A DNA stretch of 64,000 nt, from contig JBBHKE010000831.1 in NCBI GenBank assembly GCA_037447655.1, positions 145,929-209,928 of the forward strand, read 5' to 3'. Positions within the stretch are counted from its first letter, which is position 1, and each line of letters starts with the position of its first letter. The translations under genes and the position numbers were made by a program. Below, one piece after another: positions 1,725 through 49,318 of the stretch. Under the pieces are notes generated by a model. The model had not been told where the DNA came from and did no database searches. It saw only the letters and a list, made by a program, of their open reading frames with translations. The stretch comes from Zygnema cylindricum. Taxonomy: Eukaryota; Streptophyta; Zygnematophyceae; Zygnematales; Zygnemataceae.

Positions 1725-2830
1725 CTACGAATGAAACCTCTATGCTAATCGGGCATCCGGAGCACAAGGTGTTGCTTAAGAGAATATGTTAAAAACTGGA
1801 ATGAAATATGTTGTTCTTCCGCCTACTGCCACTTTTGGTCCTTACGCAATAACTGGTTCAAAGGCTAGGCGTGACTAGTGAACTCGGGGATAAATCTTTG
1901 ATAGTAGTTGGCCAGTCCTAGAAAGGTGCGGAGTGCCGAGACATCTTGCGGAGGAGGAAGGGCATCAAAGGCTGCCACCTTGACATATGGGGACCCACTG
2001 TCTCGGGGGTCACTTTATGTCCCAAGTAAATGATTTTCGGCACCCGAAAAATACCCTTGCCCGGGTGACATTTCAAGTCTTCTGCTTGGAGGGCCCGGAG
2101 GACAACCTGTATATTCTCCAAGTGCTCCTCGAATGTCTCAAAGAAGATAATCACGTCATCAATATAACACATTGCACAGTCGATTCTTCGGAGAGCTTCG
2201 TCTATTGCTCGTTGGAATTTCGCTGGTGCATTCTTTAGCCCGAACGGCATGTAGAGCCACTCATACCACCTGGACCCAGCCCAAAATGCCGCCCTCTCCC
2301 GGTGCTTGATTTCCATCGGGATTTGGTGGAACCCATTCTTCATATCCAGCGTGGAATAGACTGTGGCCTTGGCAAGAGAGTCCAAGATCTCTTCCGGGGT
2401 GGGCATCAGGTATAAGTCAAGTATAGTTGTTGTGTTGAGCATCTGATAGTCTCTGCACATCCGAAAATGTATATTTTTTCTAGACAAGTCCTTCTTCGGC
2501 GGGAGAACTGTTAGGGAAGCAAACCCATGGAGTCTTGTACTCTCTTGCACCAATCCTACTTCTACCATGGTTTGTACCTTTGGCGTGATGATTTTTTTTT
2601 CCTTGAAACTGAGTGGGTATTGTTTCTGCCAAACAATTGCCATCTCATATATCAAGTCGATCTGAAAAGGGGTTTCTTTGTAAACGCCAACATTGGTGTT
2701 CGACCATGAGAACACTTGCCAAGGTCTAATCCATCTTCTCTGGTTCCACCGCCGCCCATGCTTCCGGCGGTCTACCCCAGCGGGAGATGTTGAATTCCAA
2801 CCCTACCTGTAGATCTACTCCCCCCCCCTT
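1725..2830 (-). pseudogene. Ty3/gypsy reverse transcriptase and start of RNase H, degenerate
   Basis: A long open segment at 2715-1918 shows Ty3/gypsy RT motifs in order: RMCRDYQMLN, YSTLDMKNGFHQIP, MPFGLKNAPAKFQR, and the catalytic YIDD (codons at 2155-2166), then YLGHKVTPETVG. Near 1980 the frame shifts: in another frame the match continues with DVSALRTFLGLANYYQRFIP, then the connection to RNase H (LLRKDQKWQ). A TAG at 1823-1825 sits where family members have Trp. Similarity fades near 1725, so most of RNase H and the integrase are missing. Upstream on the same strand lie the methyltransferase and protease pieces, so this is the pol 3' half of one element. RT makes cDNA from element RNA; this copy cannot. 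Confidence 0.85.
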
Positions 2831-2926
2831 TTGTTAGGACATTACAGCTGACAACTTCCGCTAAGTTATCATTTTTTGAGCCGCTGCTCCCCCCTACTAA
2901 GCAAATTTTTGGATCCTGTGTCATGC

Positions 2927-3577
2927 TTAAATGTAAAATTGTTGGGTAAATTTTGAGTTCCTACTTGCCTCTCTCCTTCCCTCAAGCTGCAATGTGGTCT
3001 GCATCGCTAGTGATTTTGGAGTTTGAAAGTAGCTAGTCTGAGACTGAGGTGACTGAAGACTGGAAACTGGCAAAGAATGTTGTAAGACCCACGTAATAAC
3101 ATTCAAATCCATACTTTGCCTAATTAAACTACATCTTTGGAGGTCTGAAATACGTGGTGCAGCCATGGTTCTAGGTTAGTATCCCATGGATTGTTCGCGT
3201 TTTTCAATGTTTGGTGATTTGTAGATGCCGCCGTGCTATGGAATATCCACTCCAGAGCTCTTTTCCGGTAATCGTGGCTGTGAGGGAAAGAAACCTGTGT
3301 GGGAAGTGTTTTTTGTGAGGCCCATGGTTTATTGCAAAGGAGAACGATGACCGGTCAGCAGTGGTCACGAGGTGGCCATTCGCCACTTTTCCATAATTTG
3401 TTGGAATGTTATTTGGGGGTCTTGGAAGTGTGTGGCTAAGAGTTGCTTGAGAACTGAGAGTGAGACCATGTTGGTCCAATAAGCATTAACTCTGTGCACC
3501 CTGGATCCGATCTGTGCTGCGTCGAAAACTAATGGTGCCCCTAAAATCTGTGTAATCTGATTCCAACTGCTAGCCAC
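2927..3577 (-). pseudogene. DNA cytosine-5 methyltransferase domain, C-terminal half (motifs VIII-X), retroelement-borne
   Basis: On the minus strand, 3577-3365 reads VFDAAQIGSRVHR followed by YWTNM. This is the motif VIII region of C5 methyltransferases of DNMT3/DRM type, where (V/I)DA, (S/A)xHR and (F/Y)W(G/T)N are conserved. After a stop at 3365 and a frame change, 3200-3080 reads KREQSMGY, then SLIRQSMDLNVITWVL. This fits motifs IX/X, ER..(L/M)G(F/Y) followed by R..L(L/I)G.(S/A)..V..(I/V)..L. Several stops and frame changes show it is dead. The N-terminal half lies at 9996-10440, separated by the copia-1 insertion, with the five bases GCCAC repeated at both junctions. The active enzyme would methylate cytosine in DNA using S-adenosylmethionine. 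Assignment is by motif order, not by a search. Confidence 0.7.
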
Positions 3578-4624
3578 TGAAACTCTGAGACCTCCATAAG
3601 TCTTAAGAGTGGACAGCTTCTAAGAAGCCTCTAGGATAATCCTGACCCCTTTGTGTTTAAGCAAAAATAACTGCCACCCTGGCAGACAAATACTCTGACT
3701 ACCTTCACCCCTGTGAAAGCAAGATTCCCCTGAGTCGATAGCAAAAAGAATCTCTGAATTTGCTCCCGTGAGCTGTAAGTTATGGAGGGTCAAAGTTGAC
3801 CTTTTGTACAGAAGCTCTCTGGGAGAGAGGGTCCTATCTTCTAATTTTTCTAAGTCCTATCTCTCTCACAGACTCTATCTACTGATGTACGGAACCAATC
3901 AAGATTACTGTTCCGTACACAAAAGTACAGCTGCCGGTGTACTTTATGTACGGACATTGTACGACATGGCCTAAATGTCCACACGTGGAATATCCGGATT
4001 CGCTCCTTTAATCCTCGGAGATGCCGCGCTCCAATGTTACATCGCCACGTGTCATCTGGTGTGGCGATGCCCACAAACCGCCGAATTCTCCATCCGCGAT
4101 CTCGGCGCTAATTCCGGCCGTTCGATTAAACTCGCATTTGATTGTAGCCGTAATAAATACATGCGCGGTATTTGTTTCGCTTACGAAATCAATGCGCGGT
4201 ATTGATTTTTTATCTGTACAGCAATTCGTACTTTTACACTACCATATCTATGTATCCCGTTAACAGTTATAGTTAAATGACTTATTTCACGTTTACATGT
4301 TTAAATCATTATCGTACTATATGCTATGTAACACTACTTCTAGACTAAACGGCTAAGGCTGCCGGCTATCTACTCTCTGATGGCCGGCAGGTACCAGGAT
4401 CAAATTCGTCGCCGACACATATCTTTTAGTAATTAATCCCTAGACTAATATAAATTTCCCGTAAACCTGCAGATAGCCTAGGTAGCCATGGCTCTAGCTT
4501 CCTCTCCAATTTCTCAGTGACTGCGACAAGTTTGAGAGTTGGAGAGAGAAGTTAGAGGTAGACTGCCTCGGCTTCTTTATTTCTATTCAGATCTAGAAAA
4601 TACTTAAAACCATTAATTTCTACA
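3578..4624 (-). repeat. copia-1 3' LTR
   Basis: Direct repeat partner of 8950-9995. On the plus strand it begins TGAAACTCTGAGACC and ends CATTAATTTCTACA. It lies downstream of the RNase H end in element orientation, so it is the 3' LTR. The element-strand terminus TGTAG follows the polypurine tract. Confidence 0.95.
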
Positions 4625-4637
4625 CTCCCCTTATTTT
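4625..4637 (-). other. copia-1 polypurine tract
   Basis: On the element strand the bases directly before the 3' LTR read AAAATAAGGGGAG. This purine run, placed between the stop codon of pol and the LTR, is the expected primer site for plus-strand DNA synthesis. Confidence 0.75.
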
Positions 4638-5321
4638 CTAGTCAATCTTTAATTTCAGACCACACTTCTTCCTGCAGAAAATTAGCTTAGGGGAAGGCAC
4701 AGATTTGGTCATCATATCTGCTACCATCTCACTATCTGGTCGGTACTCTAAACTGATTATTTTATTTTCTACTTTCTCTCTAACAAAGCTGAGTCTAATG
4801 TCCATGTGTTTAGCTTTAAAATGATGTTTAGGATTGGCAGAAATAGCGATTGCTGCTTGATTATCACAAAATATTTTCTGCCCACCACTCTTAAGATGAC
4901 CAAGTTCACCAAGTAAAGACTTGACCCACATCAATTCTTTTATAGCAGAGCAAGAGGCCATATACTCAGCCTCCATGGTGGACTGAGCAATAACCTTTTG
5001 CTGTTTGCTACTCCAACAGCAAGCCCCATCACTCACATATAATACATATCCAGAAGTGCATCTCCTCATCGGAGCATCACCATAACTAGCATCACTCCAA
5101 GTAGTGATGTCAGTATTCTCCCCACCCAAATGCAACCATATATCCCTAGTTCCTATCAAGTATCTAAGAACTCTCTTAGCTGCCTCCTAATCCTTCTTAG
5201 TGGGAGCATTTAGACTTCTACTCAGCACTTCTACAGCTGCAGCTAAATCCGGCCGGGTACAATTTATAAAATAGATTAGACTTCCCACTACTTGCCTGTA
5301 AGGAATAGTCTGCATGAACTT
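4638..5321 (-). pseudogene. copia-1 RNase H region
   Basis: The frame ending at 4638 carries copia RNase H landmarks: TWSDASYGD near its start, QSTMEAEYMA, FCDNQAAIAIS and ADMMTKSVPSPK near the C-terminus. The expected YRQVVGSLIYF...RPDLAAAV linker to RT lies just upstream but is broken by a TAG at 5187-5189 in a position where related elements have Trp (KKD-stop-EAAKR). RNase H removes RNA from the RNA:DNA hybrid during element replication. Confidence 0.88.
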
Positions 5322-6248
5322 CTATTCTTCAGGAGATAATTCCTCGTCTAAAACTATGACTCCTTCTTCTTCACTCCCCTCACTTCCCTTCTTCAATTCC
5401 ATTGGAGTTGTACAACTATTAGCTTTATCCATTTGAAATTTTTCAAGCATGTTCCCTATTGCTTCCTTTTGAGTCAATCTTATAATTTTTCTTTTTCGGT
5501 CTCTCTCTACTTGAATTCCCAAAATATATTTTGCTTCCCCCATATCATTCATTTCAAATCTCCCCTTAAGATCGGTTTTCAGTTTATTAATTTTTTCCAT
5601 TGATTTACTTAAAACAAGCAAATCATCAACATAAATTGCAATAAATATAAAACCTTCCTTATCTTCGAAAACATAGATTGAGTGATCTGAGCTGATCCGG
5701 ATATATCCCAGACCGGTAAGAAACTCATCAATCTTCTTATTCCACTGTCGAGGCGCTTGTTTCAAACCATAAAGAGATTTAATCAGCCGGCATACCTTAC
5801 TCTCCTCTCCTTCTTCCACAAACCCTTCGGGTTGTCGCATGAAGATCTCCTCTTCCAATTCTCCATGCAAAAAGGCTGTTTTGATGTCCATCTGGTGCAC
5901 TTCCATGTCTTCCGCCGCTGCTAAACTGAGAAGTATGCGGACGGAGGGAAATCTGACCACCGGGGCAAAGGTTTCCTCGTAGTCAATTCCTTCCTTTTGT
6001 GTAAATCCCTTTGCCACTAATCTGGCCTTGTAGCGCTCGATTGTGTTATCTGGGTTCAGTTTTAGTTTGAAAACCCACTTACAACCGATTGGTTTTCGGT
6101 TAGGTGGACAGTCCACCAGCTCCCAAGTATCGGCTGCCATGATTGAAGCCATCTCCTCATTGATGGCTGTCTTCCATCGGTTTCTTTCTGGACAAGTCAT
6201 CGCCTCTCCATAAGTTTGAGGTTCATCTTGATGAGATAGTTTTGTCAC
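5322..6248 (-). pseudogene. copia-1 reverse transcriptase
   Basis: An open segment of about 308 codons holds all Ty1/copia RT blocks: KPIGCKWVFKLK, RYKARLVAKGFTQKEGIDY, VHQMDIKTAFLHGELEEEI, YGLKQAPRQWN, the catalytic YVDD in FIAIYVDDLLVLS, and GEAKYILGIQVERDR. The segment itself is uninterrupted, but stops at both edges disconnect it from integrase and RNase H. Confidence 0.92.
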
Positions 6249-7400
6249 CTTGTTATTAACCTGTTTTTCTTGCAGTCTTTTACTACTTCTCCTTCCCCCT
6301 TCAAAATCTGAGGCCGGAATAGATGGTTCTCGTGGATTCTTTCAAACAAACTCGGTTTCTCCCCTATCCCTTGATTTCGAATCAATTTCCACCACGTCTT
6401 CCGCTTCGGGTAGAGTTGTCACTGGAGTTTCCACATCCGAGTCCTTTTCAGTCTGATTTGTACCTGCAAGAATGTCATCGTCTCTAAAACCTGGATAGTT
6501 AGGAAGCTCAAAGTCATCAGAATTTTCTGACTCAAATCTGATTTTTACTGATTTTGTATATTTGAAAGGGTCCACAGACTTTCCTTCATCCATAACTACT
6601 AGATGCTTTACTAAGATTATATCTTCTCTTTTTACATCATAAACTCTATATCCTTTAACATCCTCATCATATCCTAATAAGTATCCCGGTTTTCCTTTAG
6701 GATCTAGCTTCCAATTAGACCGATCTGTATCTAGACTGAATACTTGACTGCCGAAAACTTTAAATGAGATAAGTCTGGTTTCCGTTTTGTCCATCTCTCA
6801 TAAGGTGTTTGATCTTTTATAGCTGAAGTAAGAACTCTATTTTTGAGGTAATAAGCACAGTTCATTGCTTCTGCCCAAAACTTTTTTCCTATCTTCTTAT
6901 CCGACAAGTGTTCTATTTAACCTTTCAGCTACCCCATTCTGTTCCGGATTTTCTGGAACTGTCTTTTGGTGTTGAACCCCATCTTCCCTCAAAAAATCCT
7001 CAAACTGGTTAGAAGTATACTCTCCACAATTGTCACTCCTTACTCTCTTGATTGGAGTTTCATGGAGTTTTTCGCTCCATGCTTTATATTGTCTAAATCA
7101 ATCCTCAGCTTCTGACTTGTTTTTCAAAAAATACACCCGGGAATACGGAGACCAATCATCTGTTATAGTCATCATAAATCTCTTCCCCCCCGGTGAGGGC
7201 ACTCTAGCCGGTCCCCAAATATCTGTGTGTACTAGATCGAGAAGTTTTTCTCCCTTGTAGGTGGTTGTTTTAGGAAAGGGTAATCTGTGTGCTTTATCTT
7301 GAGCACACCCACTACAATCACTTATATCATCACTCTCACTGAACTGAATCCCTTCCACCACTCCCATCTTTTTCATCTCTCTTAACTTATCTAGATTCAC
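6249..7400 (-). pseudogene. copia-1 integrase, broken
   Basis: From 7400 down, the HHCC-like zinc region ends in CSGCAQDKAHRLPF. It is followed by LVHTDIWGPARVPS with the first catalytic Asp and a second Asp in TITDDWSPYSRVYF. After an in-frame TGA the frame continues with RVRSDNCGEYTSNQFEDFL and PEQNGVAERLNR, which carries the catalytic Glu, and then hits another stop. The C-terminal part at 6794-6342 reads FKVFGSQVFSLD and LLGYDEDVKGYRVYD, followed by an acidic linker. Integrase would insert element cDNA; this copy is inactive. Confidence 0.88.
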
Positions 7401-8044
7401 ATGCCCAAGCCTCTATGCCACATCATAATATCATGAACACCAGCATAATAAAATTTCTTCGTTTCATTACTTAAGATCAGCCTTAACATCCCATGGCTAC
7501 CTTTCTCAGCAATGAAATAGACATTCTCCTCAAAACTAGCAGTAAAGACTCCTTCTCTAATGCTAGTGAAAAAACCCTTATCATCTAATACAGATGTAGG
7601 GATAAGGTTTTTGTTCAGCTCCGAAATAAACAATACATCGGAGAATGTTAATATGTATGTCTTTCCTTCTACTAACACTTTCAGATCTACCGATCCTACA
7701 AGAGTAGTGGTGACTATCCTCCCATCCTCGTACTCTATCTCTACGGTGGGAATCTTTCTTATCTTAGTGAACAGGTGCCTATCCTTACACATGTGCATTG
7801 AGGCACCTGAATCTATAATCCAGCGTGCTTCACCTTTCAATCCACCGTAAGCACATTTCTGCCTTCGTGGAATTTCAACCTCAGTTTTTGCCTCCAACTC
7901 CTCATCCAAAAAGAGCTCATCGTCCTCATCCTCGGATTCCGCCTCAAGTACCTGTGTGACAAGGGCCTTTTTCTTTCCTCTCGTGGTACCACCGGTCTGC
8001 CCCTCGTTTAACCGAAGCTCGGTTAGCTTAGTGCACTCTGCCAT
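7397..8044 (-). pseudogene. copia-1 aspartic protease
   Basis: The segment contains WIIDSGASMHM, the copia protease active-site block (D-S-G-A), then the typical DLKVLVEGKTYILTFSDVLF stretch and LNKNLIPTS. It runs to the start of the integrase zinc region (WHRGLG), where a one-base shift near 7410 ends the frame. The protease would cleave the Gag-Pol polyprotein. Confidence 0.88.
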
Positions 8045-8969
8045 ATAGTGCCCGGTTTCTTACAAAAATGACATAAACCTTTGGGAGCCCTTGGTTCGAA
8101 CTCGTCAGCCTGTTTTTTTTGCTCCCTACCCCCATAGTTTCCGACTGGTTTTCGGGAATCCTTGTTCCTCCAATCGGTCGCTGTTGCCAAGGCTTGGCCA
8201 CTCTTTCCTCCCCTTCGGATCTCAATCGTATTCTCTCGAACAAGAATCATCCCTACCACTGAGTTTCATATGCACCTTGAGTCTGGCAAGTCCTGCACAC
8301 GGTTGACTATGTTCTCGAACTCATCAGATAACTTCATCAGTAAACAGTTAACCTTTTCTTTTTCACTAAAAACTTTTCCCGCACTCTCTAGCTCCATGAA
8401 GAGTGTAGCAAGCTCATTGCAAAAATCCAACATATTTCCCCCTTTGTATACATACTCCTTAACTTTCTGATCAGCCAACTGTTGTTGCTGAATCGTACCA
8501 CTTCGGTACATCTCTATGAGATCCATCCAAAGATCGGATGCCCTCTGTACTTGCAAATGAGGACATGCAAGTCTTTGAGTGAGATGGCGTAGAATGAAGT
8601 GCTTTGCCGCCATATTGTTGAAGTCCCAGGTTTCAGTATCGTTCTCCTCGTTCCTTGAAATAGGTGACATGAATGCTAAACTAGTTGCTATTGGTGTGGC
8701 CGCCTTCTTCTCCTTTCTTTTGTCCACCACCTCTCCTTCCTTTGTTTCCTCTGTTGAAGGTGATCCTCTTTCCTGGTGAATCTGCTTCCTTTAAACCCTG
8801 GAGGAATTCCAAGACTTGATGGACGCCCCAATCGTCCACTCATTATCCCCCAAAACCTTTTTTCGCATAGAACTCCTATCATCATACTTTCCCAGTATAT
8901 GAAGACAGTTCCATTAAAGATTGGTACCCTGGAGGGTGGGCCCATAACCTGAAACTCTGAGACCTCCAT
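8045..8969 (-). pseudogene. copia-1 Gag, with start codon inside the 5' LTR
   Basis: The most upstream ATG lies at 8969-8967, about 18 bases inside the 5' LTR. The frame crosses the LTR end and the primer binding site, giving an N-terminus MEVSEFQVMGPP followed by VPIFNGTVFIYW, a typical copia Gag opening. A frameshift near 8730 leads to the UBN2-like middle part (FILRHLTQRLA, LWMDLIEMYRSGT, YVYKGGNMLDFC). Near 8050 a zinc knuckle CHFCKKPG is broken by a missing base; in the shifted frame the expected H and C follow (CX2CX4HX4C). Gag packages element RNA. Confidence 0.85.
8935..8949 (-). other. copia-1 primer binding site, anticodon-arm type
   Basis: Directly after the 5' LTR the element strand reads GGTTATGGGCCCACC. 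The complement, GGTGGGCCCATAACC, is the anticodon stem-loop sequence of plant initiator Met tRNA (CAT anticodon in the CCCATAACC context), rather than the tRNA 3' end used by most plant copia elements (PBS starting TGGTATCAGAGC). The match to the tRNA is from memory of the tRNA sequence. Drosophila copia is known to prime from this internal tRNA region. Confidence 0.8.
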
Positions 8970-9995
8970 AAGTCCTCAGAGTGGACAACTTCCAAGAAGC
9001 CTCTAGGATGATCCTGACCCCTTTGTGTTTAAGCAAAAATAACTGCCACCCTGAGAGACAAATACTCTGACCACCTTCACCCTTGTGAAGGCAAGACTCC
9101 CCTGAGTTGATAGCAAAAAGAATCTCTGAATTTGCTCCCCTGAGCAGTAAGTTATGGAGGGTCAAAATTGACCTTTTGTACAGAAGCTCTCTAGGAGAGA
9201 GGGTCCTATCTTCTAATTTTTCTAAGTCTTATCTCTCTCACAGACTCTATCTACTGATGTACGGAACCAATCAGGTTACTGTTACGTACGCAAAAGTACA
9301 GCTACCGGTGTACTTTATGTACAGACATTGTACGACATGGCCTAAATGTCCACACGTGGAATATCTGGATTCGCTCCTTTAATCCTTGGAGATGCCGCGC
9401 TCCAATGTTACATCGCCACTTGTCATCCGATGTGGCGATGCCCACAAACTGCCGAATTCTCCATCCGCGATCTCGGCGCTAATTCCGACCGTCCGATTAA
9501 ACTCGCATTTGATCGTAGCCGTAATAAATACATGCGCCGTATTTGTTTCGCTTACGAAATCAATGCGCGGTATCGATTTCTTATCCGTACCGCAATTCGT
9601 ACTTTTACTCTACCATATCAATTTATCCAGTTAACAGTTATAGTTAAATGACTTATCCTACGTGTACGTGTTTAAATCATTATCGTACTATATGCTTTGT
9701 AACACTACCTCTAGACTTAACGGCTAAGGCTGCCGGCTATCTACTCTCTGATGGCCGGCAGGTACCAGGATCAAATTCGTCGCCGACACATATCTTTTAG
9801 TAATTAATCCCTAGACTAATATAAATTTCCCGTAAACCTGAGGATAGCCTAGGTAGCCATGGCTCTAGCTTCCTCTTTAATTTCTCAGTGACTGCGACAA
9901 GTTTAAGAGTTGGAGAGAGAAGTTAGAGGTAGACTGCCTCGGCTTCTTTATTTCTATTCAGACCTAGAAAATACTTAAAACCATTAATTTCTACA
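8950..9995 (-). repeat. copia-1 5' LTR
   Basis: Direct repeat partner of 3578-4624, lying upstream of gag on the minus strand. In plus orientation it starts TGAAACTCTGAGACC and ends CATTAATTTCTACA. The first 18 or so bases at its inner end encode the Gag N-terminus. Confidence 0.95.
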
Positions 9996-10440
9996 GCCAC
10001 ATGTTTTTTTTGTTATCACTTGGGTGAACATTTTCTAAGACATACCCCACCGACTTGTCTTGAAGCTTCTGTATTCCGGTGATCATCCGAATCATCTAGA
10101 AGAAGGTTCTGCTTCAGCTGCCTTGGTTTCCTTTTCCTTGTCCTGCTATGGTGTATCCTTGAGAAGGCCATCCGGCTACAACCAAATCTACCCTCCCCAG
10201 ACTTTCTAAATGAGAGGTCATAATCTGGTATACATTCTGGGGAAGTTTTCGTAAGCGTTAAAAAATGAGGTCACTAGTATTTGTTGGGGATACAGTTGGT
10301 GGAGCTGGTGTAGGCGGTGCTCACTGACAACTTAAGCTTCTGATGCTATTTCTACGGCCGCATAGTCCTCCACTAGGTATCTTGCCTTTAACACTGCTTC
10401 CAAATTGGAACTGATTCCAAAAAAAAGAAGATAAGATTCA
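9996..10440 (-). pseudogene. DNA cytosine-5 methyltransferase domain, N-terminal half (motifs I, IV, VI), retroelement-borne
   Basis: Minus-strand reading from 10440 gives motif I (FFGISSNLEAVLKA, GIS at about 10418-10410), then EHRLHQLHQLYPQQ. After a one-base frame change comes motif IV, LGRVDLVVAGWPSQGYTIAG. Further on, motif VI is VGYVLENVHPSDN, with ENV at 10036-10028. The order and spacing match a single-domain C5 methyltransferase (S-adenosylmethionine loop, catalytic loop, ENV). The catalytic PCQ is PSQ here (Ser codon at 10164-10162). There is a stop after motif I and frame changes around motifs IV-VI, so it is dead. The next domain upstream on the strand is the retropepsin-like protease. 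Confidence 0.8.
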
Positions 10441-10797
10441 GAGTCCTGACTGGGGAACCATCAATGACACTATTTGTCTATTGAATTTTTTATCGTCGGT
10501 TGGGACATTAAAGGGTTTGACCAAAGGTACTTTGTTTTTTTTGTTATAATTGTTGCAAATCTTTGGTTCACCTCCCGCCGAAGTGTGGCCATTTGTGATA
10601 ATCTTTTGTGGTATTCTGCTTCCCACCAGTTGGAAATGGGGAATTGCTAGATTGTGTCGACGATATCGGTTGAACTAGCAAATAGCTCTGAAGGGGTTGA
10701 GGTGGCATACACAGGGTAGCATCTAGACACCGGGACATTACTCCTTCCCCTATTTCACAATTCTAAGGGAACCACAACCTTGGTCCCCTCAAGATCC
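10441..10797 (-). pseudogene. linker between protease and methyltransferase in the gypsy element
   Basis: The 62-codon minus-strand frame at 10626-10438 runs directly towards methyltransferase motif I and ends in a stop just before it. It has basic patches (NNYNKKNK) and no recognised domain. It is taken as part of the same polyprotein because of position and strand only. Confidence 0.4.
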
Positions 10798-11394
10798 TCA
10801 AGGTCCCGAACAGTGAACGGTTCTTTCCAAATACTCAGCCCCATATTCAACCGTGTCCATGTAGCCATCCCCATCATAGAGCTGGTTTCGGATTTGTTGG
10901 CCTGCGTCATCAGAGAATTCGATTACCATGACCATATTAACCCCGTAGACTGGTTGGCTTCCACGGCTAACCGTGCTTTGGCAAATGTCGCTCGGACAAA
11001 TTTCAGGACGAAGTTCCTCGATCATCTCTTGTAAAGTTGAGGTGGTGATTAGGTTAGGTAGAGCCCTGGTATCAACCACAGAATCATGATAGCCTCCGTA
11101 TCCGTTGAGTTTGAAATTTCCGGTTCGATTGAGAATGACGACCACTGATAACGCCTTGTAATCCCTATCTACAATAGAGGTCTTAGGTTCCGAAGAAGGA
11201 AAGATTGTTCCGGTCGGATTTGCTAAAGCCACTCTCTCTCTTCCCATATAGATTTCCTTCCTTAAAGCCTGATTAAGGATATCTTCAAGCAGATTAATGG
11301 GTGGCAGATTATGGGATGAAGCCAGAGTTTTCACGTGAGTGAGAACGTAGGGCATAAGGTGCCTGACTAACATTACCGTTAGTTCAGAGGACAT
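10798..11394 (-). pseudogene. gypsy-type retropepsin (aspartic protease) region
   Basis: This open segment of about 198 codons contains VVDTRALPNLITTSTLQEM. That matches the retropepsin pattern D-T-G-A-x-x-N-(L/I) with the Gly changed to Arg (DTRA codons 11073-11062), preceded by a short hydrophobic strand (KLNGYGGYHDSVV). A later hydrophobic stretch (NMVMVIEFSDD) fits the second sheet. The substitution at the invariant Gly would inactivate it. It sits between gag-like sequence and the methyltransferase, so the order is protease, methyltransferase, RT. The call rests on one motif plus context. Confidence 0.6.
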
Positions 11395-11486
11395 TTTTAG
11401 GCAGATTATGGGATGAAGCCAAAGTTTTCACGTGAGTACGTAGGGCATAAGGTGCCTGACTAATATTACCATTGGTTCAGAGGACA
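11303..11486. repeat. tandem duplication, about 90 bp
   Basis: GCAGATTATGGGATGAAGCC through GTTCAGAGGACA occurs at 11303-11392 and again at 11401-11486 with a few changes and a 4-base deletion. Both copies encode an (M/V)LVRHLMPYVLT-like stretch on the minus strand, so Gag/protease sequence is partly doubled here. Confidence 0.9.
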
Positions 11487-11922: not shown

Positions 11923-11927
11923 AAAGG

Positions 11928-12942
11928 TGTTGATCTGTGGATACTACACCCACTGAAGATGAAGATTATACAGGAGTAGTCATCACAGAGTTAAAATCAG
12001 CAAGAAGCATTCACAAATGATCAGAAAAATATATAACTTTGGAACACAGCCTAAGACAATTTAGGCAACCAAATGGCCTACAAATATGCCAAAATGCAAA
12101 GAATACAAAGAGGAACACAAGTGCAAATTTACACAGAAATCTGCAAACAGATCTGAGAAATCCTCTCAGTCAAAGATATCAAAATGCTAAATCATAATTT
12201 GATACAACAAGTTCCTAACTTATGAAATGGTTAAGTCCTACTCTTATACCTAAAAGATCTAACCTTCTTAAAGCTAATAGCCACTCACTAACCTAACCAA
12301 GGTAAGAAGGCATATCAGCCATGCATCCGTAATATCTACCTGATCTAAGGAGGATACCTGAATATGTCAAGGTATGTCATACATAATGAATCTGAACTGA
12401 GTGCTTAATCAAACAAGAACACGCCTATGTACAAAGCAAGGATATGTAACGTCACACTATAATCTACAAAACATGTCGGATAATCATAGACGTGGTCACG
12501 GTTACTTAGCGTCCGTCAGTAGCAAATCTCTGCCGTCCATCTTTCACAAGTTTCATCCCAAATGAAACTTTGTGTGACACCTCGGTCTTCCGTAATCTAC
12601 AAAACACGTCGGATAATCATAGACGTGGTCACGGTTAATCAGCGTATGTCAGTAGCAATTCTCCACCGTCTATCTTTTACAAGTTTCATCCAAGATGAAA
12701 CTTTGTGTGACACCTCGGTCTTCCGGTGAATCTGAGTCGTAGAACCGAGTCTATCGAAGTGTCTCATCTCTGTTTGCTGACGCGTGTCCCGCTAATGTGA
12801 TACACAGTGTACTCTCTCGCTGTTCAGTGTCACACTAATTCTGGTACATATTGAACCAGGCTTCCACAAAATAAACCAAGTACCCAGAAGACACTCCCCT
12901 CACATAGGAGGCTTAGTGAGGACTAAAGCTTTCAAAACAACA
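11928..12942 (-). repeat. copia-2 3' LTR (with internal 132-bp duplication)
   Basis: Partner of 17184-18065. The block from TAATCTACAAAACA to CACCTCGGTCTTCCG is present twice in tandem (about 12461-12592 and 12593-12724) but only once in the other LTR, so the duplication arose after insertion. Confidence 0.93.
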
Positions 12943-12960
12943 CTCCCCTAAAGCTTTAGA
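12943..12960 (-). other. copia-2 polypurine tract region
   Basis: On the element strand the bases before the 3' LTR read AAAGCTTTAGGGGAG, ending in a G-rich purine run like that of copia-1 (AAGGGGAG). Confidence 0.65.
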
Positions 12961-12965
12961 CTTTA

Positions 12966-13490
12966 CTAGCCACTATGACCATATGCCTCTCTACAGAATT
13001 TTAATTTTGGTGCAGGCAAGGGTTTTGTCATCATATCTGCTAGCATTTCCTCATCGGGTAAGTAGTTAAGCTTCAGAATTCTAGCCATCACCTTTTCTCT
13101 CAGAAAGTGTAATTTAATATCAATATGCATACTTTTGAAGTGATGACTTCCATAAGAAAAAATAACCATAACAGCTTGATTGTCACACCATAGGACTTCA
13201 GGACTTGACTGCATTAATTTCAGTTCTTGTAAAAGAAATTTTAACGAAAGAAGTTCTTTAACAGCTGAGCTGGCTGCCATATATTCAACTTCCATGGTTG
13301 ATTGAGCAGTCACCTTTTGAAGCTTGTTGGTCCAACAGCAAGTACCATCACCAATCTTCAAAATAAATCCAGTGGTAGAGCGTCTGCTTGGCATGTCACC
13401 ATAACTCGTATTGCTCCAGCTGATAATTTTCACTTCATCTCTTCTGAGAGTAAGTTTGATATCCCGTGTTCCTGCAAGGTATCTGAGAAC
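12966..13490 (-). pseudogene. copia-2 RNase H
   Basis: The frame at 13433-12966 has SWSNTSYGDMPSRRSTTGF, AQSTMEVEYMAASSAVKEL, WCDNQAVMVI and ADMMTKPLPAPKLKFC, the RNase H series of Ty1/copia, and ends about 20 bases before the LTR. It is not in frame with the RT segment upstream. Confidence 0.9.
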
Positions 13491-14471
13491 TCATTTTGCT
13501 GCCTCCCAATCTGATCTTTTCGGGTTCTGAAGGCTTTGGCTTAGAGCTCCAACTGCCGCTGCAATGTCAGGACGCGTGCTGTTCATGAAATAGATAAGAC
13601 TCCGAACAACTTGTCTGTAAGGAATTTTGGACATGAACTCTGACTCCCCTAGTTCAATGTCATCCTCGAGTGACATTCCTCCATCTGTCTTCTTTCCTTC
13701 CATTTTTTGCCTAAACTCCATAGGGGTGGCACTCCCCTTTGCATCTGCCATGCCAAATCTTTCCAGTATATTACCAATGGCCTTTCTCTGAGTGAGATAA
13801 ATAACCTTCTGATTCCTATCTCTCTCTACCTGAATGCCTAGGATATACTTCGCCTCGCCTAAATCCTTCATTTCAAACTTGGCATTTAGAGATGCTTTTA
13901 TCTTATTTATCTCATTTACAGACTTACTGATAAGCAGCAGGTCATCTACATACACTGCTACATAGATCACACCATCCTCTCCTTCTATGACGTAAACGCA
14001 GTGATCTGAGCTGATCCTTGTGAAACTTAGACTGGTAATAAACTCATCTAATTTCAGATTCCACTGACGTGGAACCTGTTTTAATCCATACAGTGATTTC
14101 AACAGTTTATAGACTAGATTTTCCTTTCCTTTTTTTGCATACCATTCAAGTTGTTTCATATAAATTACTTCCTCTAAATCTCCATGCAAGAAAGCAGTTT
14201 TAACATCCATTTGATGCAACTCCCTATTCTCTATTGCAGCTAAAGACAACAAGACTCTAACAGTGGGAAACGTGACAGTAGGAGAAAAGGTTTCCTCGTA
14301 GTCTATTCCTTCTTTTTGACTAAAGTATTTTGCAACCAGACGAGCTTTATACCTTTCAATAGTGTTATCTGGGTTGAGCTTCACTTTGAAGACCCACTTA
14401 CACCCAATGGCTTTCTGATCCAGTGGAAGCTCCACAAGATCCCACGTCTGAGCTTCTATAATCGACCTCAT
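13491..14471 (-). pseudogene. copia-2 reverse transcriptase
   Basis: A 326-codon open segment includes KAIGCKWVFKVKLNPDN, KEGIDYEETFSPTV, HQMDVKTAFLHGDLEE, YGLKQVPRQWN, VAVYVDDLLLIS (catalytic YVDD), GEAKYILGIQVERDR, then YRQVVRSLIYFMNSTRPDIA. A stop or frame change upstream separates it from integrase. Sequence is close to copia-1 RT, so the two families share a lineage. Confidence 0.92.
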
Positions 14472-15410
14472 CTCATCATTTGCAGCTGCTATCTAGTGAT
14501 CCTTTTCAGGAACAGAAAATGCTTCCTGAATGGTAAGAGTCTCCCCGGTGCTTGGAGAAAAAGCATATTGAACATGTTCTCCCCTCCAGCGAGAACTTTG
14601 TCTTCTTCCCTCCTGGAAAATTTGAGGGTGGAACTGTTGGATCTTGACTTCGATTTTGGGGTCGAGGAAGATTAGTGCCAGCTGTTCTTTGCTGTTCAGT
14701 TGCTGAAGGTATTCCAGTATTTTGCACTCCAAGAGAAGAAGAAGTTGTAGGTGTAGATGAGTGAAACGGGATCTGATCCAAAATGACATATTCCTGCAGT
14801 TTTTCTTTCTTCTCACTTTCATCCATACTAAATACATCTATGGATTCACTCTCATCTTTCACCAGAATATTTCTGGCAATCTGAATGGTATGTTTTTAAG
14901 GACAATATACTCTGTATCCTACAGATTCATCATCATATCCTATGAAGATTCCAGGTTTGGACTTTGGGGTTAGTTTCCAGTTTGGTAAATTATCTAGTAC
15001 AAAGCATTTACTACCAAACACGCTGAAGTGACTAACATCTGGTTTTCTACCTCTCCACACTTGATAAGGTGTTTTTCCTTGAACAGATGTAGTTTCTAAT
15101 CTGTTCCTAATATATGTTGCAGTTTGATAAGCTTCAGCCCAAAACTTAATATCTACTCCTTTATGAACCATCATAGATTTAACACTCTCAGTTAGAGTTC
15201 TATTCAACCTTTGTGAGACTCCATTCTGCTCAGGAGTATATGGAACAGTAAACTGATGAGAGATATCATTTTCTTTTAAATAAGCAACAAATTCATTGGA
15301 AGTATATTCACCTCCATTATCAGATCTTAGAGAAAGAATTGATCTGCCGTGAAGCTTTTCTGCCCAAATCCGAAAATGTTAAAAGTGGGTGAAGACCTCC
15401 TTTTTCTCCT
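14472..15410 (-). pseudogene. copia-2 integrase C-terminal half and linker
   Basis: At 15207-14896 the frame reads MNRTLTESVKSMMVHKG, FWAEAYQTATYIRNRLET, then VFGSKCFVLD and GIFIGYDDESVGYRVY, the distal part of copia integrase. The 14862-14493 segment is an acidic, proline-rich linker with competing frames. Stops separate all pieces. Confidence 0.85.
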
Positions 15411-15862
15411 TCATAAAATAGATCCGGCTGAATTTGGAAAATTCATCTGTGAATGTAACAAAGTATTTGTTCCCAGCCAGAGATGGTATTTTGGAGGGTC
15501 CCCACACATCTGATGAATAAGCTTTAAGAGATTAGTTGCTTTAAAATCTGCAGTTTGAGGTAAAGGAAGTTTATGAAGCTTACCCAGAGCACAACAATCA
15601 AAAATATTTGAATGTTGGTGACCAAGTTTAACTCCTACCATATCATTCTTTACCATCTTTTTGAGCCTGTCGTTATGAACATGACTCAATCTTTTATGCC
15701 ACAAAACATTATCACATAAGACACTGGAGTAAGCAAAGGAAGTTGTATTCACCAGGTCTATCCGGTACAAGTTTATGCCACAAAACATTATCACATAAGA
15801 CACTGGAGTAAGCAAAGGAAGTTGTATTCACCAGGTCTATCCGGTACAAGTTGTTAGGGCCT
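15411..15862 (-). pseudogene. copia-2 integrase zinc-binding part, with local duplication
   Basis: The frame contains LWHKRLSHVHNDRLKKMV and CCALGKLHKLPLPQT, the HHCC region before the integrase core. A segment of about 75 bp (CAAAACATTATCACATAAGA to TATCCGGTACAAG) is tandemly repeated at about 15703-15851, so the upstream edge of this frame is doubled. Confidence 0.82.
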
Positions 15863-16258
15863 CTAGTTCACATTACAGCTACCCCTTCCCTCTTTGCTGA
15901 CTATTTTCTTTCCCCTTCCCTCTTTGCTGACTATTTTCTTTCCTTGCTTCTGAAGTATTTCAAAGCCGCCTCTACTTTTTGCAACTGATGTAGAAAACAA
16001 ATTCTTTTTAAACTGAGGGACATACAACACATCATAGAGAGTTCTACTAACTGCCTTGCCATCTATCTCACACATAAGGATGACAGTCCGTTGGGCTTTT
16101 GCTTCAATTGTGGCTCCACAAAAATAGTAGATCTGTCCAGTGGGGATAGGTTGCAGATTTGTGAAAGAGGCCTTGTTCAGCACATATGAGAAGAGCTTCC
16201 GGAGTCCATGATCCATCCGTGGTCTTTGTCTCCCTCCATCAGTTTCGCAAGAGCGCAT
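15863..16258 (-). pseudogene. copia-2 protease, frameshifted
   Basis: Near 16235-16178 one frame reads DHGWIMDSGSSSHMC, the protease active-site block (DSGS), and stops. A second frame continues with VILMCEIDGKAVSRTLYDVL and FKKNLFSTS. A short repeat (KKIVSKEGRG twice) comes from a tandem duplication at about 15885-15945. Confidence 0.85.
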
Positions 16259-17180
16259 AACTATTTGTCGTCAGTTTTTGGAAAACTGACATTATCCGGC
16301 ACATTTTCCTTGTTGACCGACTCCGGATGCGGTGTGTCAGCTGAAAATGCCTCAGTTTTCGAAGGGGGTGGCGGTGGTGTAAAAGGTGGCTTTTGTGGTG
16401 TGTAGATCCTTTTTGGCCTCCATCCATTTCTGAACACACCAGTCTCACAAGCTTTGAGAAACTTAGGACCCGGTTTGTACAGATGTCTTTGATTGTAACA
16501 ATAGACACACTTGTTGTAAGATTGAGAACCATGATAACCCTGAGATCTGTTTCCTTGATACTGAACATTAAAAGCTCTAGAAGACATTATTGGATTAAGA
16601 GCTATAAATGTTGAATCTTCCTCTAGCACTAGTTCTATAGCTGTTGCTAGATTCCAGACTGACTTATCCAATTTTTTAAACTTGCTGAGGCTTCTTTATA
16701 TTCTTCAAGAAGTCCTCGCATAAGAATCATAGTCTGATGGTAAGGGGAGAAGTTCCCCCCTGAATATGCATTCTCTGTTAGTAAAAGCCGAAGTCCATTA
16801 CAAAATTCTGCCATACTACCACCTGTATACCTATATTCCCAAATGTTTACAGCTGTAATAATCTCATGCTTAGCATTAGCTTTTAGGTAGATGGTTTTCA
16901 GGGAAGTCCAAATTTGTGACGCCTTTTTCATCTTAATATATGACATAAGCAAATCCTCTGAAATCATTAACTTTAACAGATGCAAAGCCTGCTGATTTTT
17001 CCCACCATAGGATGCATCAGTTTCAGCAAGACTGTCATAAACTACATCAAACAGTTTAACTTGAGTAAAATAGGACTCAACCAAATCAAACCAAAAAAGG
17101 TATTTCCTTCCATCAAAAACTGGTATCTGTGAGGGCGGGCTCACACCTGTTGTTCTGTGGATACTATACCCCGCCCTCAC
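16259..17180 (-). pseudogene. copia-2 Gag
   Basis: The frame from 17180 begins within LTR/PBS sequence and reads TTGVSPPSQIPVFDG, then YLFWFDLVESYF, followed by UBN2-like sequence (LKLMISEDLLMSYIKM, IWTSLKTIYLKANAK, YRYTGGSMAEFCNGL). The overlapping frame 16671-16261 carries a zinc-knuckle remnant CVYCYNQRHLYKPG with a Cys further on, then a proline-rich tail. As in copia-1 and copia-3 the Gag N-terminus crosses the primer binding site. Confidence 0.85.
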
Positions 17181-17183
17181 ACC

Positions 17184-18065
17184 TGTTGTTCTGTGGATAC
17201 TACACCCACTGAAGATGAAGATTATACAGGAGTAGTCATCACAGAGTTAAAACAAGCAAGAAGCATTCACAAATGATCAGAAAAACATACAACTTTGGAA
17301 CACAGCCAAAGACAATTTAGGCAACCAAATGGCCTACAAATCTGCCACAATGCAGAGAATACAAAGAGGAACACAAGTGCAAATTTACACAGAAATCTGC
17401 AAACAGATCTGAGAAATACTCTCAGTCAAAGATATCAAAATGCTAAAGCATCATTTGATACAACAAGTTCCTAACTTCTGAAATGGTTAAGTCCTACTCT
17501 TATGCCTAAAAGATCTAACCTTATCAAAGCTAATAGCCACTCACTAACCTAACCAAGGTAAGAAGGCATATCAGCCATGCATCTACAATATCTACCTGAG
17601 CTAAAGAGGATACCTGAATATGTCAAGGTATGTCATACAGGATGAATCTGAACTGAGTGCTTTATCAAACAAGAACACGCCTATGTACAAAACAGGGATA
17701 TGTTACGTCACACCGTAATCTACAAAACACGTCGGATAATCATAGACGTGGTCACGGTTAATCAGTGTCCGTCAGTAGCAAATCTCCGTCGTCCATCTTT
17801 CAGAAGTTTCATCCAAGATGAAACTTTGTGTGACACCACAGTCTTCCGGTGAATCTGAGTCGTAGAACCGAGTCTATCGGAGTGTCTCATCTCAGTTTGC
17901 TGGCGCGTGTCCCGCTAATGTGATACACAGTGTACTCTCTCGCTGTTCACTGTCACACTAATTCTGGTACATACTGAACTAGGCTTCCACAAAATAGACT
18001 AAGTACATAGAAGACACTCCCCTCACATAGGAGGCTTAGTGAGGACTAAAGCTTTCAAAACAACA
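17184..18065 (-). repeat. copia-2 5' LTR
   Basis: Partner of 11928-12942. Its inner border is blurred by a 35-bp tandem repeat (TGTTGTTCTGTGGATACTA starts at both 17149 and 17184), so the LTR could be counted from 17149. The decayed primer site GGTGTGAGCCCGCCC lies on the element strand at 17148-17134; it resembles the copia-1 site with three transitions and one missing base. Confidence 0.9.
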
Positions 18066-19134
18066 AAAGGTGCGTGCGTGGTGAGCCTTTGGAGGTTCCA
18101 TTTCTCACTCTATAATTTCATCATCATCCCCAATCGCCGTGGTTTCTTGTTCTTGTTCCGCTAACTTTTGTAATAACTCTTGTTTCTTCCATTCGAGTTT
18201 TAGAGTTGCCGTCAAAGCAAGGGTTTGGGAGGAGGATCCTAAACGCATGACTACTGATTCCACTGGGTCCGAGAGGAGGATCCTAAGCATAGGGCTGCCA
18301 ATTCTGTATCCATAGGGGAGAATTTTTGAATCTGCTGTTGGATAAATAACTCCGGGGTAAGCCTTGCCTGACCTAATGGGGCTCTTTTTGGTTCTTCCAT
18401 GGTCAGACGTCCCCATGGGTAAAGTAGCTGGAGGGGAAGAGGATTTATTGTAGTTTCTCCTCCACCAGTGAATAAATGATACTGCATCATTTCTTTTAGA
18501 ACCCCATTCTTGCGGAAACATTGCCCCTCATTGTGCCTCATGAAACCACAAGCTTCACATTTGGAGCCTTCGGTGGTGTATTGCTCCTCAACTCATTGGA
18601 TATCTGAGCACCATCAAATTTTTGAAAGTTTGATTTGTCTCAGCTTGGATTGAGACATCTTGGCAGTTTTGGACCGGGGAGTAGGTTTGTATGTCTTCTT
18701 ATTGACAGGTGTTTTATCTCCTCCTCCACCTTCTTGTCCGCGTTTCTGCAGTTTTTGGGTTTGCTGCGCTTGTTTTTTTCAAATTTGGTTTTCTTGATTA
18801 TCAATTCAGGTTTGAGTTTCCTCGGACATTGTTTCCACACGTGACCGATTTACTAGCAATTTAGACGGTTGTAGAGAAATACTTTTTCGTCTGCCCCCCT
18901 TGCAGGTTCGACCCTTTTTTCCGCCACTTGCTTCTTTTTAAGCTTTCGCAAAGCTTGCAGTTCATCAAATATTTCCTGATGCAATGATGTTTCTCCGGCG
19001 AACCCTGCAAAGTTAGCTTTGGCTTTACCAGTAACAGCTTTTTCTCGAGCCAAGCTGTGGACGAAATGGTCATATAATTTCATAGCCAATAGAGAAATGT
19101 CTTTTGCCAAGGGATTAATCTCATGAATGGCCAA
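18066..19134 (-). pseudogene. gypsy element Gag with CCHC zinc knuckle
   Basis: Minus-strand codons at 18559-18518 encode CEACGFMRHNEGQC, an exact CX2CX4HX4C zinc knuckle, the nucleic-acid binding motif of Gag nucleocapsid. Downstream (18521-18105) are a basic/proline stretch and a Glu/Gln-rich end. Upstream, 19134-18853 is a helical charged segment (LQALRKLKKKQVAEKR). The pieces are in different frames, so the region is decayed. The copia-2 insertion lies at its 3' end. Confidence 0.65.
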
Positions 19135-23389: not shown

Positions 23390-23721
23390 TGACAATGCTT
23401 ATTAAAGCGTGGCTCCTCAGGCTATGATCTATATGCTATCCTAAATCTACTCATAGCTATCCTAAATCTACTCATCAGTATGTCTTTCATAGGGGGTGGT
23501 TTCAACCCTTTTGCGTTTCAACTAAGAGTATTACCATCACCTGCTCCACAAAGTAATGGCACTTTGACCATCCATGGAGCTGTCAACCAATTGCAAAACT
23601 TTAAACCTAGGGAAAACAACTAGAATTCCATAAAATTGGGAGGAAGCATCGTCGACCAAAAAAAAGTTGTAACGAGTGAGTGACGTTTATAAGAATGATT
23701 ATTTCAAAGAAATTCCTATGT

Positions 23722-24087
23722 TTAGCTTTTTCTTCTCCCTCTTCTTGTAATCCTTGTCTTCCTCTCTTTTCTTTGAATCTTTTTTTCACTTTTAACTCCC
23801 TTTCTTTCTTTTATCCCTTTCTTTTGTTCTCCCTTTTCTTTTTTTTCCAATGCTTCTTCATCAACCTCATATTCCAATTCTTTTTCCAGTTGCCTTTCCA
23901 CATCTACCTCCACTTTCACCTTCATACTGTCTTCTACTTCCTGTCCCACTTCCACTTCCTCTTCTTCTTCCACTTTTTTTTCCATTGCCTCTTTCGCTTG
24001 TACTTCTACATCCTCTCCCACGTTTATTTCCAATTCATCTTTTTCTTCCACTTTTTGATCCATTTCGTCTCTCGGTTCCACCTCCAC
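23722..24087 (-). CDS. E/K-rich coiled-coil reading frame in the left foldback arm
   Basis: The minus-strand frame gives about 121 residues dominated by Glu, Lys and Val (blocks such as EVEVGQEVEDSMKVKVEV), predicted helical and highly charged, ending in a basic RKERKTRITRRGRRKS tail. The corresponding part of the right arm (about 38.88-39.25 kb, plus strand) is recognisable but broken. No family is recognised; composition bias alone could create such a frame from a purine-rich repeat. Confidence 0.3.
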   Translation of the reverse strand: MEVEPRDEMDQKVEEKDELEINVGEDVEVQAKEAMEKKVEEEEEVEVGQEVEDSMKVKVEVDVERQLEKELEYEVDEEALEKKEKGEQKKGIKERKGVKSEKKIQRKERKTRITRRGRRKS

Positions 24088-24369
24088 TTTTTCCTGGTAT
24101 GCAATTCCTCCAACGCCTTCTTCTAGTTCTCCTTCTTCAACTTCATTTCATTCTTCTCTTTCGGTTTTTATCTTTTTTATCATCCGCTTATCCTTTCTAT
24201 TCCGCTTCTTTTTTCTTTTTTTCTCCCTATTTTCTTCTTCCTCACCCTTTACTTCCTTTGTACCGCTAACTCTTCTCCTTTCCATTTACTATTTCTTGCT
24301 TCTTCTTCTCCTTCTCATAATCCTATTCCTTTGATCGTCTTTTTCTTTGAGAGCTAAAATTCCGAAGGT

Positions 24370-25228: not shown

Positions 25229-25777
25229 TATTGTTTTTAGTGCGATTCCGGGCGATCATTTCGTGCAGCGTCTAGTACGATTTCATCGGTACTTCGAAAT
25301 CGTATCGCCACATCATCATTTACAGTGGAACACCAAATCATGTGTCAGACAGACGTGTAGACGTTCCCACGATGTATTATTGCTTGTTGGCTTGTACACG
25401 TGGCATCTGGTCATTTGACCGCCACTTAGTTGCCTTTGTTTGCATTAGAATAAATAGCATAGGACAAGCAGCAAGAGCTATCACTCACAGACAAATTAGG
25501 CTTGGCAGCTTTCAGCATTCAGAATCAGTGTATTACTGGACATTGTCCCTTTTGATTACAATTGTATTCCTTCTATCATAATGGAATCTACTTTCTGAAC
25601 GGCTATCTATTCTATGCCTTGCTACATGTGAATGCTATCACTCTCTCACTTCAAACTTGTCTTTTCTACCTTTGTGATTTATTGAGTTCGTCGCTTCTGC
25701 GAATCTTGTTAACAGATCTGGTATACGTGGTCCTAGGAACTCTCCTAGTTACCCGAAATGTCTGATCAAGGTCAACA
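25229..25777 (+). repeat. copia-3 5' LTR
   Basis: Begins TATTGTTTTTAGTGCG and ends GATCAAGGTCAACA. A TATA-like AATAAATAGCATA lies near 25450. The ATG at 25758, 20 bases before the LTR end, is in frame with gag. Confidence 0.95.
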
Positions 25778-38570: not shown

Positions 38571-38599
38571 CTCTCGGAAAATTTTGCTATGACGGAAGA

Positions 38600-41150: not shown

Positions 41151-41157
41151 GAAGGTA

Positions 41158-49310: not shown

Positions 49311-49318
<8 letters not shown>

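What the first reader, a model, noticed from the sequence alone, without database searches (positions are those of the whole stretch)
2927..10440. A DNA cytosine-5 methyltransferase carried inside a Ty3/gypsy-type retroelement
Seen: minus-strand motifs in the right order for a C5 methyltransferase. These are motif I (GISSNLEAVLKA), IV (DLVVAGWPSQGYTIAG), VI (YVLENVHPSDN), VIII (FDAAQIGSRVHR, YWTN) and IX/X (REQSMGY, SLIRQSMDLNV). The domain lies between a retropepsin-like segment and a gypsy RT on the same strand. The copia-1 insertion that splits it carries an exact GCCAC target duplication, proving the halves were once joined. Known: retrotransposon-borne C5 methyltransferases have been described in dinoflagellates and charophyte algae. 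Inference: such an enzyme could mark element cDNA or alter host silencing. The placement between protease and RT would be a distinctive architecture.
Basis: partly seen in the sequence, partly recalled or inferred. Interest (0 to 1): 0.9.

Follow-up and report, generated by a model that had tools for sequence, protein, structure and literature searches.

The report
Dead retrotransposon carrying a DNA methyltransferase
A worn-out jumping gene in what is probably a plant-lineage genome once carried its own DNA-methylating enzyme fused ahead of its reverse transcriptase, and unbroken relatives of it exist elsewhere, so an element carrying a tool that hosts normally use to silence such elements is real here, though not the first of its kind.

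Summary
The core observation is real. On the minus strand a C5 cytosine methyltransferase (MTase) lies directly ahead of a Ty3/gypsy reverse transcriptase (RT). Copia-1 (3578-9995, exact GCCAC duplication) splits it between positions matching residues 179 and 181 of an intact relative. That relative, P0056 (1494 aa, metagenome), reads MTase-RT-RNase H-integrase in one frame; P0058 reads MTase-RT; P0062 (Closterium) keeps part of the MTase ahead of RT. A profile of relatives' MTases scores 92, 77 and 35 bits on the window's pieces; the best of 20 shuffled windows scores 2.1. Between P0056 and P0058 the MTase is 77% identical, the linker 43%, RT 88%: constraint. The window copy is dead: catalytic Cys replaced by Ser, 5 stops and 5 frameshifts in 343 MTase codons, RNase H cut near 1730. 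The claimed retropepsin segment found no support. The enzyme class is nearest DNMT3A or HhaI; motif order is canonical, not DRM's. The kind is known (KnitGypsy-Dnmt3 in Klebsormidium, de Mendoza 2018). Possibly new: further carriers, one RT clade holding two domain orders (MTase-RT and RT-RNase H-MTase), and a PHD-like tail. That the enzyme methylates element cDNA is inferred.

The parts
10003..10521 (-). MTase part I (motifs I to VI), in two frames; motif IV reads PSQ instead of PCQ
   Evidence: tblastn with P0056, linked E 5.8e-26; frame-aware alignment to P0056 residues 8-179, 4 stops and 2 frameshifts over 171 codons; NCBIfam dcm E 1.5e-7
3056..3577 (-). MTase part II (motifs VIII to X)
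   Evidence: tblastn with P0056 E 5.9e-26; P0056 residues 181-355, 1 stop and 3 frameshifts over 172 codons; no match in Pfam or NCBIfam alone
2693..3076 (-). Linker between MTase and RT, poorly conserved
   Evidence: 33% identity to P0056 349-488, 3 stops, 2 frameshifts, 26 gap codons
1978..2727 (-). Ty3/gypsy reverse transcriptase, open frame, YIDD intact
   Evidence: PF00078 E 1.2e-24; 62% identity to P0056, E 8e-94; no stop or frameshift in 245 codons
1730..2077 (-). Start of RNase H, then homology ends; integrase and tail not found in the window
   Evidence: tblastn with P0056 714-829, E 4e-23; 3 stops and 1 frameshift over 115 codons
3578..9995 (-). Copia-1 inserted within the MTase; LTRs 3578-4624 and 8950-9995, 94.8% identical
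   Evidence: self-comparison and ends; Pol_BBD in frame 7397-8059
3573..3577 (.). GCCAC target duplication of copia-1, low-coordinate copy
   Evidence: read
9996..10000 (.). GCCAC target duplication of copia-1, high-coordinate copy
   Evidence: read
11928..18065 (-). Copia-2 inserted upstream in the same gypsy copy; LTRs about 94% identical
11923..11927 (.). AAAGG target duplication of copia-2, low-coordinate copy
18066..18070 (.). AAAGG target duplication of copia-2, high-coordinate copy
10798..11427 (-).
   Evidence: no Pfam match; no protease signal
18518..18559 (-). CCHC zinc knuckle motif, probably part of gag
   Evidence: pattern scan of six frames, the only one on the minus strand; the other match in the window is at 26487 on the plus strand

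Best explanation
The window holds a decayed copy of a Ty3/gypsy-type retroelement whose Pol carried a C5 cytosine methyltransferase fused ahead of the reverse transcriptase. Two copia elements later inserted into it, one inside the methyltransferase, and the copy is cut off within RNase H. In the intact relative P0056 the same unit is one open frame: MTase, RT, RNase H, integrase and a PHD-like tail. Shown: homology, order, splitting by the insertion, intact relatives, conservation of the enzyme between relatives, and death of this copy. Inferred: in a working element the enzyme is made as part of Pol, enters the particle, and methylates cytosines in the new cDNA after second-strand synthesis, so that cDNA or new insertion resembles the host's methylated DNA. 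I put the identity at about 0.95 and the cDNA-marking mechanism at about 0.4; the confidence below is for identity and architecture.
For: P0056 (61% identical in RT) and P0058 (66%) carry PF00145 and PF00078 in one protein. P0056 maps collinearly on the window, MTase I, MTase II, RT, RNase H, each E 4e-23 or better; the two MTase halves meet at P0056 residues 179 and 181. MTase profile 92, 77 and 35 bits against at most 2.1 in 20 shuffles. RT tree groups window, P0056 and P0058 at 100/99. MTase 246/318 identical between P0056 and P0058 against 45/105 in the linker (p 2e-10) and 178/202 in RT. PCQ, ENV and RVR kept in P0056, P0058 and P0120. For the mechanism: isolated SymbioDIRS-Dnmt3 domains methylate CG in yeast (PMC5890265).
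Against: No LTR pair of the gypsy copy was found in the window and integrase is missing from it, so this copy alone does not prove a complete LTR element. The protease is not shown. P0062's MTase is not reported by Pfam. For the mechanism: the only gypsy enzyme tested, KnitGypsy-Dnmt3, gave no methylation in yeast, called inconclusive by its authors; most retroelements do without such an enzyme.
Confidence: 0.93

Rival explanations
1. In living elements the domain no longer methylates DNA and is kept as a structural or nucleic-acid-binding part of Pol, or methylates RNA.
For: The position of the second Gly of motif I (FxGxG, recalled) is Asp in P0056 and P0058. The KnitGypsy-Dnmt3 enzyme gave no signal in yeast, called inconclusive.
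Against: PCQ, ENV and the RVR of motif VIII are kept in P0056, P0058 and P0120. DNMT3A also departs from FxGxG (FDGIA in the alignment). SymbioDIRS-Dnmt3 domains are active.
Confidence: 0.2
2. The enzyme restrains the element or helps its silencing (self-limitation good for host and element), rather than protecting cDNA.
For: Element stretches are CpG-poor (0.32 to 0.66 in 6 stretches) against 1.10 and 1.52 in two other stretches of the window, which fits methylated elements. Self-limitation is named as a possibility in PMC5890265.
Against: CpG depletion is as strong or stronger in the copia elements, which show no MTase, so it does not point to the element's own enzyme.
Confidence: 0.25
3. 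The MTase is a host gene or a chance run of motifs beside a gypsy fragment.
For: The window copy is broken and the second half has no family match of its own.
Against: Fused open frames in P0056 and P0058, collinear match, shuffled control.
Confidence: 0.02
4. The MTases of the MTase-RT and RT-RNase H-MTase elements were captured more than once, independently, instead of one capture followed by a move.
For: Two domain orders. On the RT tree the MTase label needs 2 changes against the PHD-labelled rows, and 28 of 500 shuffles do as well.
Against: All 7 carriers used lie in one 12-row RT clade (95/90); MTase and RT diverge at about the same pace between P0056 and P0120 (0.40 and 0.38) and between P0056 and P0062 (0.44 and 0.47).
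Confidence: 0.35

Closest known systems
KnitGypsy-Dnmt3, Klebsormidium nitens (PMC5890265)
   Same: C5 methyltransferase inside the Pol frame of a gypsy-type element of a streptophyte; canonical motif order; conserved between copies
   Different: Its sequence and the place of the enzyme within Pol were not seen (figures not held). The K. nitens RT proteins found here, P0064 and P0065, show no MTase and lie outside the window's clade. The window copy is dead.
SymbioDIRS-Dnmt3, Symbiodinium (PMC5890265)
   Same: Dnmt3-type methyltransferase sharing a frame with RT; two domain orders coexist there too
   Different: DIRS element with tyrosine recombinase. P0056 has a gypsy-type integrase; the recombinase was not looked for in the P0120 type.
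SymbioLINE-Dnmt (PMC5890265)
   Same: Retroelement carrying a cytosine methyltransferase
   Different: LINE with the enzyme in a separate ORF upstream of the RT ORF
Orchid Ty3/gypsy elements with an m6A RNA demethylase (PMC9289625, abstract and passages seen)
   Same: Plant gypsy element that captured a nucleic-acid-modifying enzyme
   Different: RNA demethylase in an additional ORF, a different enzyme family

Membership tests
C5 cytosine methyltransferase | Significant match to C5 MTase profiles | tested here: met
   Window part I: dcm E 1.5e-7, PF00145 E 3.5e-4, both below the curated cut-offs. Relatives P0056 and P0058: PF00145 E 7e-10 and 2e-11, above the cut-off.
C5 cytosine methyltransferase | Catalytic PC and ENV motifs | tested here: inconclusive
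   Met in P0056, P0058 and P0120. Window: ENV kept, PC is PS, so the copy is a member by descent, not an enzyme.
Ty3/gypsy retroelement | Gypsy-type RT and RNase H | tested here: met
   RT E 1.2e-24; RT and RNase H match P0056
Ty3/gypsy retroelement | LTRs, protease and integrase | tested here: inconclusive
   No LTR pair found; protease not shown; integrase present in P0056 but the window copy is cut before it
Dnmt3 class | Nearer to Dnmt3 than to other C5 MTases | tested here: inconclusive
   P0058: DNMT3A 2.5e-6, HhaI 1.8e-5. Four-row profile: HhaI 1.4e-9, DNMT3A 2.3e-9. No row of the two lists (47 and 57) is named DNMT1 or CMT. No tree with host enzymes.
DRM | Rearranged motif order | tested here: not met
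   Order I, IV, VI, VIII, IX, X in the window and in P0056, P0058 and P0120
KnitGypsy-Dnmt3 | DNMT within the Pol frame of a gypsy element | tested here: met
   P0056 and P0058; the window by collinear match
KnitGypsy-Dnmt3 | Groups with the K. nitens DNMT and RT sequences | not tested
   The published sequences were not at hand; P0064 and P0065 are other or partial K. nitens proteins

The most novel reading that the evidence does not exclude
One old capture of a DNA methyltransferase founded a clade of gypsy-like elements, reaching at least Closterium and the window's host. In it the enzyme has been kept under constraint, diverging at about RT's pace, was moved within Pol (ahead of RT in one branch, behind RNase H in another), and in at least one element (P0056) is joined to a PHD-like chromatin-reading tail: a mobile element with its own writer and reader of epigenetic marks.
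Probability: 0.35. Interest if true: 0.72.

Novelty: new member of a known kind. Interest (0 to 1): 0.55.

Why it matters
Hosts use cytosine methylation to silence mobile elements, so elements that carry the methylating enzyme put the tool of silencing in the parasite's hands. If the carriers form one old lineage with the enzyme under constraint, the open question of what the enzyme does for the element becomes testable: intact members can be compared with sisters lacking it, and the isolated domain assayed. A writer plus a PHD-like tail in one Pol would tie DNA marking to choice of insertion site.

Tried and rejected
Tried without result. Protein search with MTase part I: 0 of 136 candidates. 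Viral contigs with part of MTase II: 0 of 5 stretches; with the MTase alignment: 0 of 46 stretches. Prokaryote genomes with the same alignment: 0 of 47 stretches. These do not show absence, since only short patterns or words are scanned. Rfam: 0 matches at gathering thresholds. Protease profile: no signal; the two intended positive controls lacked the motif used to cut them and did not run, so that test is weak. Structure prediction was busy at all 7 tries.

Considered and rejected: a chance run of motifs; a host gene beside the element (fused relatives); a DRM enzyme (motif order). Considered and left weak: that the MTase decayed before the RT. RT has 0 of the 14 stops and frameshifts counted over MTase, RT and RNase H (p 0.0025 if uniform), but segments were chosen after seeing them, the linker with its 5 breaks was left out of that count, and the ratio of MTase to RT log-divergence, worked out by hand, is about 2 both for window against P0056 and for P0056 against P0058.
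Full report
What was claimed.

Check of the observation. Searches of the pieces support the enzyme. Part I (motifs I-VI) matches NCBIfam dcm at E 1.5e-7 (31.4 bits, curated cut-off 100.65) and Pfam DNA_methylase at E 2e-4 and 3.5e-4 (21.3 and 20.5 bits, cut-off 22). In PDB it finds HhaI and DNMT3A only weakly (best E 0.015 and 0.22). Part II (motifs VIII-X) has no match in Pfam or NCBIfam, and its single PDB row is an unrelated protein at E 0.39. The RT frame 1918-2802 is a certain RVT_1 (E 1.2e-24). The copia ends and duplications are exact: copia-1 3578-9995 with GCCAC, copia-2 11928-18065 with AAAGG.

Intact relatives. A search of the RT frame found 55 of 423 candidates. The same frame searched among longer proteins found 134 of 1504 candidates, of which the best 120 are listed. 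The best, P0056 (1494 aa, 61% identity over 86% of the query), carries RVT_1, RNase H, integrase and DNA_methylase; P0058 (685 aa, 66% over 66%) carries RVT_1 and DNA_methylase. P0056 maps back on the window collinearly as MTase I (two frames), MTase II, RT and RNase H. A frame-aware alignment places MTase I at P0056 residues 8-179 and MTase II at 181-355, so copia-1 sits between neighbouring codons of one domain. A profile of four relatives' MTases scores 92, 77 and 35 bits on the window, and the best of 20 dinucleotide-shuffled windows scores 2.1.

State of the copy. Against P0056 the MTase has 5 stops and 5 frameshifts over 343 aligned codons at 38-40% identity; against P0058, 6 and 6 over 330. 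Motif IV reads PSQ where P0056 has PCQ. RT has no stop or frameshift over 245 codons at 63% identity. The linker has 3 stops and 2 frameshifts over 120 codons, RNase H 3 and 1 over 115, and homology ends at 1730. No LTR pair of the gypsy copy was seen. Upstream there is one CCHC knuckle on the minus strand at 18559, probably gag. The 209-aa frame at 10798-11427 could not be shown to be a protease. The copy is a fossil, older than both copia insertions, whose LTR pairs are about 94-95% identical.

How far it extends. Of the 175 RT relatives held (55, the 120 listed), 6 match the MTase profile at E below 1e-3: P0056, P0058, P0062 (Closterium), P0120, P0109 and P0130. Four of these trained the profile, so they match by construction; P0109 and P0130 are independent finds. 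Pfam reports DNA_methylase in P0056 and P0058, just below its cut-off in P0120, and not in P0062; P0062's part matches the window at E 1.5e-7. In P0056, P0058 and P0062 the MTase is ahead of RT; in P0120, P0109 and P0130 it follows RNase H, and the last two end within it. An RT tree was built: of 176 sequences including the window, 107 passed a length cut and 71 were used (70 best-scoring, one further tagged row). It puts the window with P0056 and P0058 (100/99) and all 7 carriers, window included, inside one 12-row clade (95/90) that also holds P0057, P0059, P0061, P0106 and P0110, in which no MTase was detected. Some of that lack is uninformative: P0106 matches P0120 only up to residue 990 and P0110 only up to 664, before the MTase, and P0061 has the same RT as P0062 but a protein that starts after the MTase. 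Counted against the 4 PHD rows alone, the MTase label needs 2 changes and 28 of 500 shuffles do as well. The window and P0061 branches are flagged as long, so placement within the clade is unsure. The named K. nitens RTs, P0064 and P0065, fall outside this clade and show no MTase.

Constraint. Between P0056 and P0058 identity is 246/318 in the MTase, 45/105 in the linker and 178/202 in RT; MTase exceeds linker (p 2e-10) and is below RT (p 0.002). From P0056 to P0062 MTase and RT are 0.44 and 0.47 identical, to P0120 0.40 and 0.38. Only proteins were available, so Ka/Ks was not computed.

Class of enzyme. P0058's domain finds DNMT3A first (2.5e-6), then HhaI (1.8e-5); the four-row profile finds HhaI (1.4e-9) and DNMT3A (2.3e-9) about equally, with chains named DRM2 at 0.61; no row of the 47 and 57 listed is named DNMT1 or CMT. 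The motif order is canonical, so it is not a DRM. The published K. nitens enzymes were placed in a divergent Dnmt3 clade (PMC5890265, section read), which fits but was not tested here.

PHD-like tails. P0057, P0059, P0060 and P0063 end in a PHD finger by Pfam. P0056's tail was not found by a profile of those four at E up to 1, but it aligns with P0057's PHD and keeps the eight Cys and His positions of the C4HC3 pattern (pattern recalled). So P0056 may pair a methyltransferase with a histone reader. This lies outside the window, whose copy is cut before that point. PHD tails are known on gypsy-integrase-related Ginger1 transposases (PMC2836005, passages).

Mechanism. Shown: fusion, order, constraint in relatives, death here. 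From the literature: isolated SymbioDIRS-Dnmt3 domains methylate CG in yeast, while KnitGypsy-Dnmt3 gave no signal, called inconclusive. Inferred: an enzyme in Pol would sit with RT in the particle and methylate the finished cDNA, an idea raised for SymbioDIRS in that paper. CpG depletion in the six element stretches measured (0.32-0.66, against 1.10 and 1.52 in two other stretches) fits a host that methylates its elements, but copia elements without MTase show it too.

Literature. Nine searches ran; listings are capped at 20 or 40 rows. The one primary report of DNMTs in retrotransposons that I recognised in them is PMC5890265 (abstract, sections 6, 9, 10 and 11, and passages seen; figures not held). 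PMC12344493 (passages) mentions DNMT3 members embedded in LTR Copia and DIRS elements in streptophytes and dinoflagellates, citing it. In the listings and passages I saw no Closterium case, no two domain orders in one gypsy RT clade and no MTase plus PHD element; two orders are reported for SymbioDIRS. Most subscription papers are not held, so this is no proof of absence.

Host. The window is eukaryotic nuclear DNA with a GH5 glucanase gene fragment (PF00150 E 6e-12) and several retroelements. Green-lineage organisms named among the close RT relatives are Closterium and Klebsormidium, so a streptophyte is likely, but the species is not known.

Verdict. The main finding is right and now rests on intact relatives; the protease and an active role are not shown. 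It is a member of a kind described in 2018, with wider spread and variants that may be new.

Noticed in passing
P0120, P0109, P0130 (relatives, not in the window): RT-RNase H followed by the same type of MTase, with no integrase among the Pfam domains: a second domain order in the same RT clade.
   Followed up: partly
[quoted passage not shown]
   Followed up: partly
25225-30854: Copia-3 on the plus strand: the 300-base stretches 25225-25524 and 30555-30854 are reported 100% identical and long frames are open, so it is a young insertion.
   Followed up: no
1150-1456: Nine-copy tandem array of a 34-base unit just beyond the cut end of the gypsy copy.
   Followed up: no
23395-25216 and 37618-40650: Long inverted similarity (68-74% over several pieces) between two stretches some 12-15 kb apart, in purine- or pyrimidine-rich DNA.
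   Followed up: no
56936-57715: Fragment of a GH5 glucan 1,3-beta-glucosidase-like gene, probably with introns.
   Followed up: no
gypsy, copia-1, copia-2 and copia-3 stretches against 40500-50000 and 54600-57800: CpG observed/expected is 0.32-0.66 in the element stretches and 1.52 and 1.10 in the other two.
   Followed up: partly
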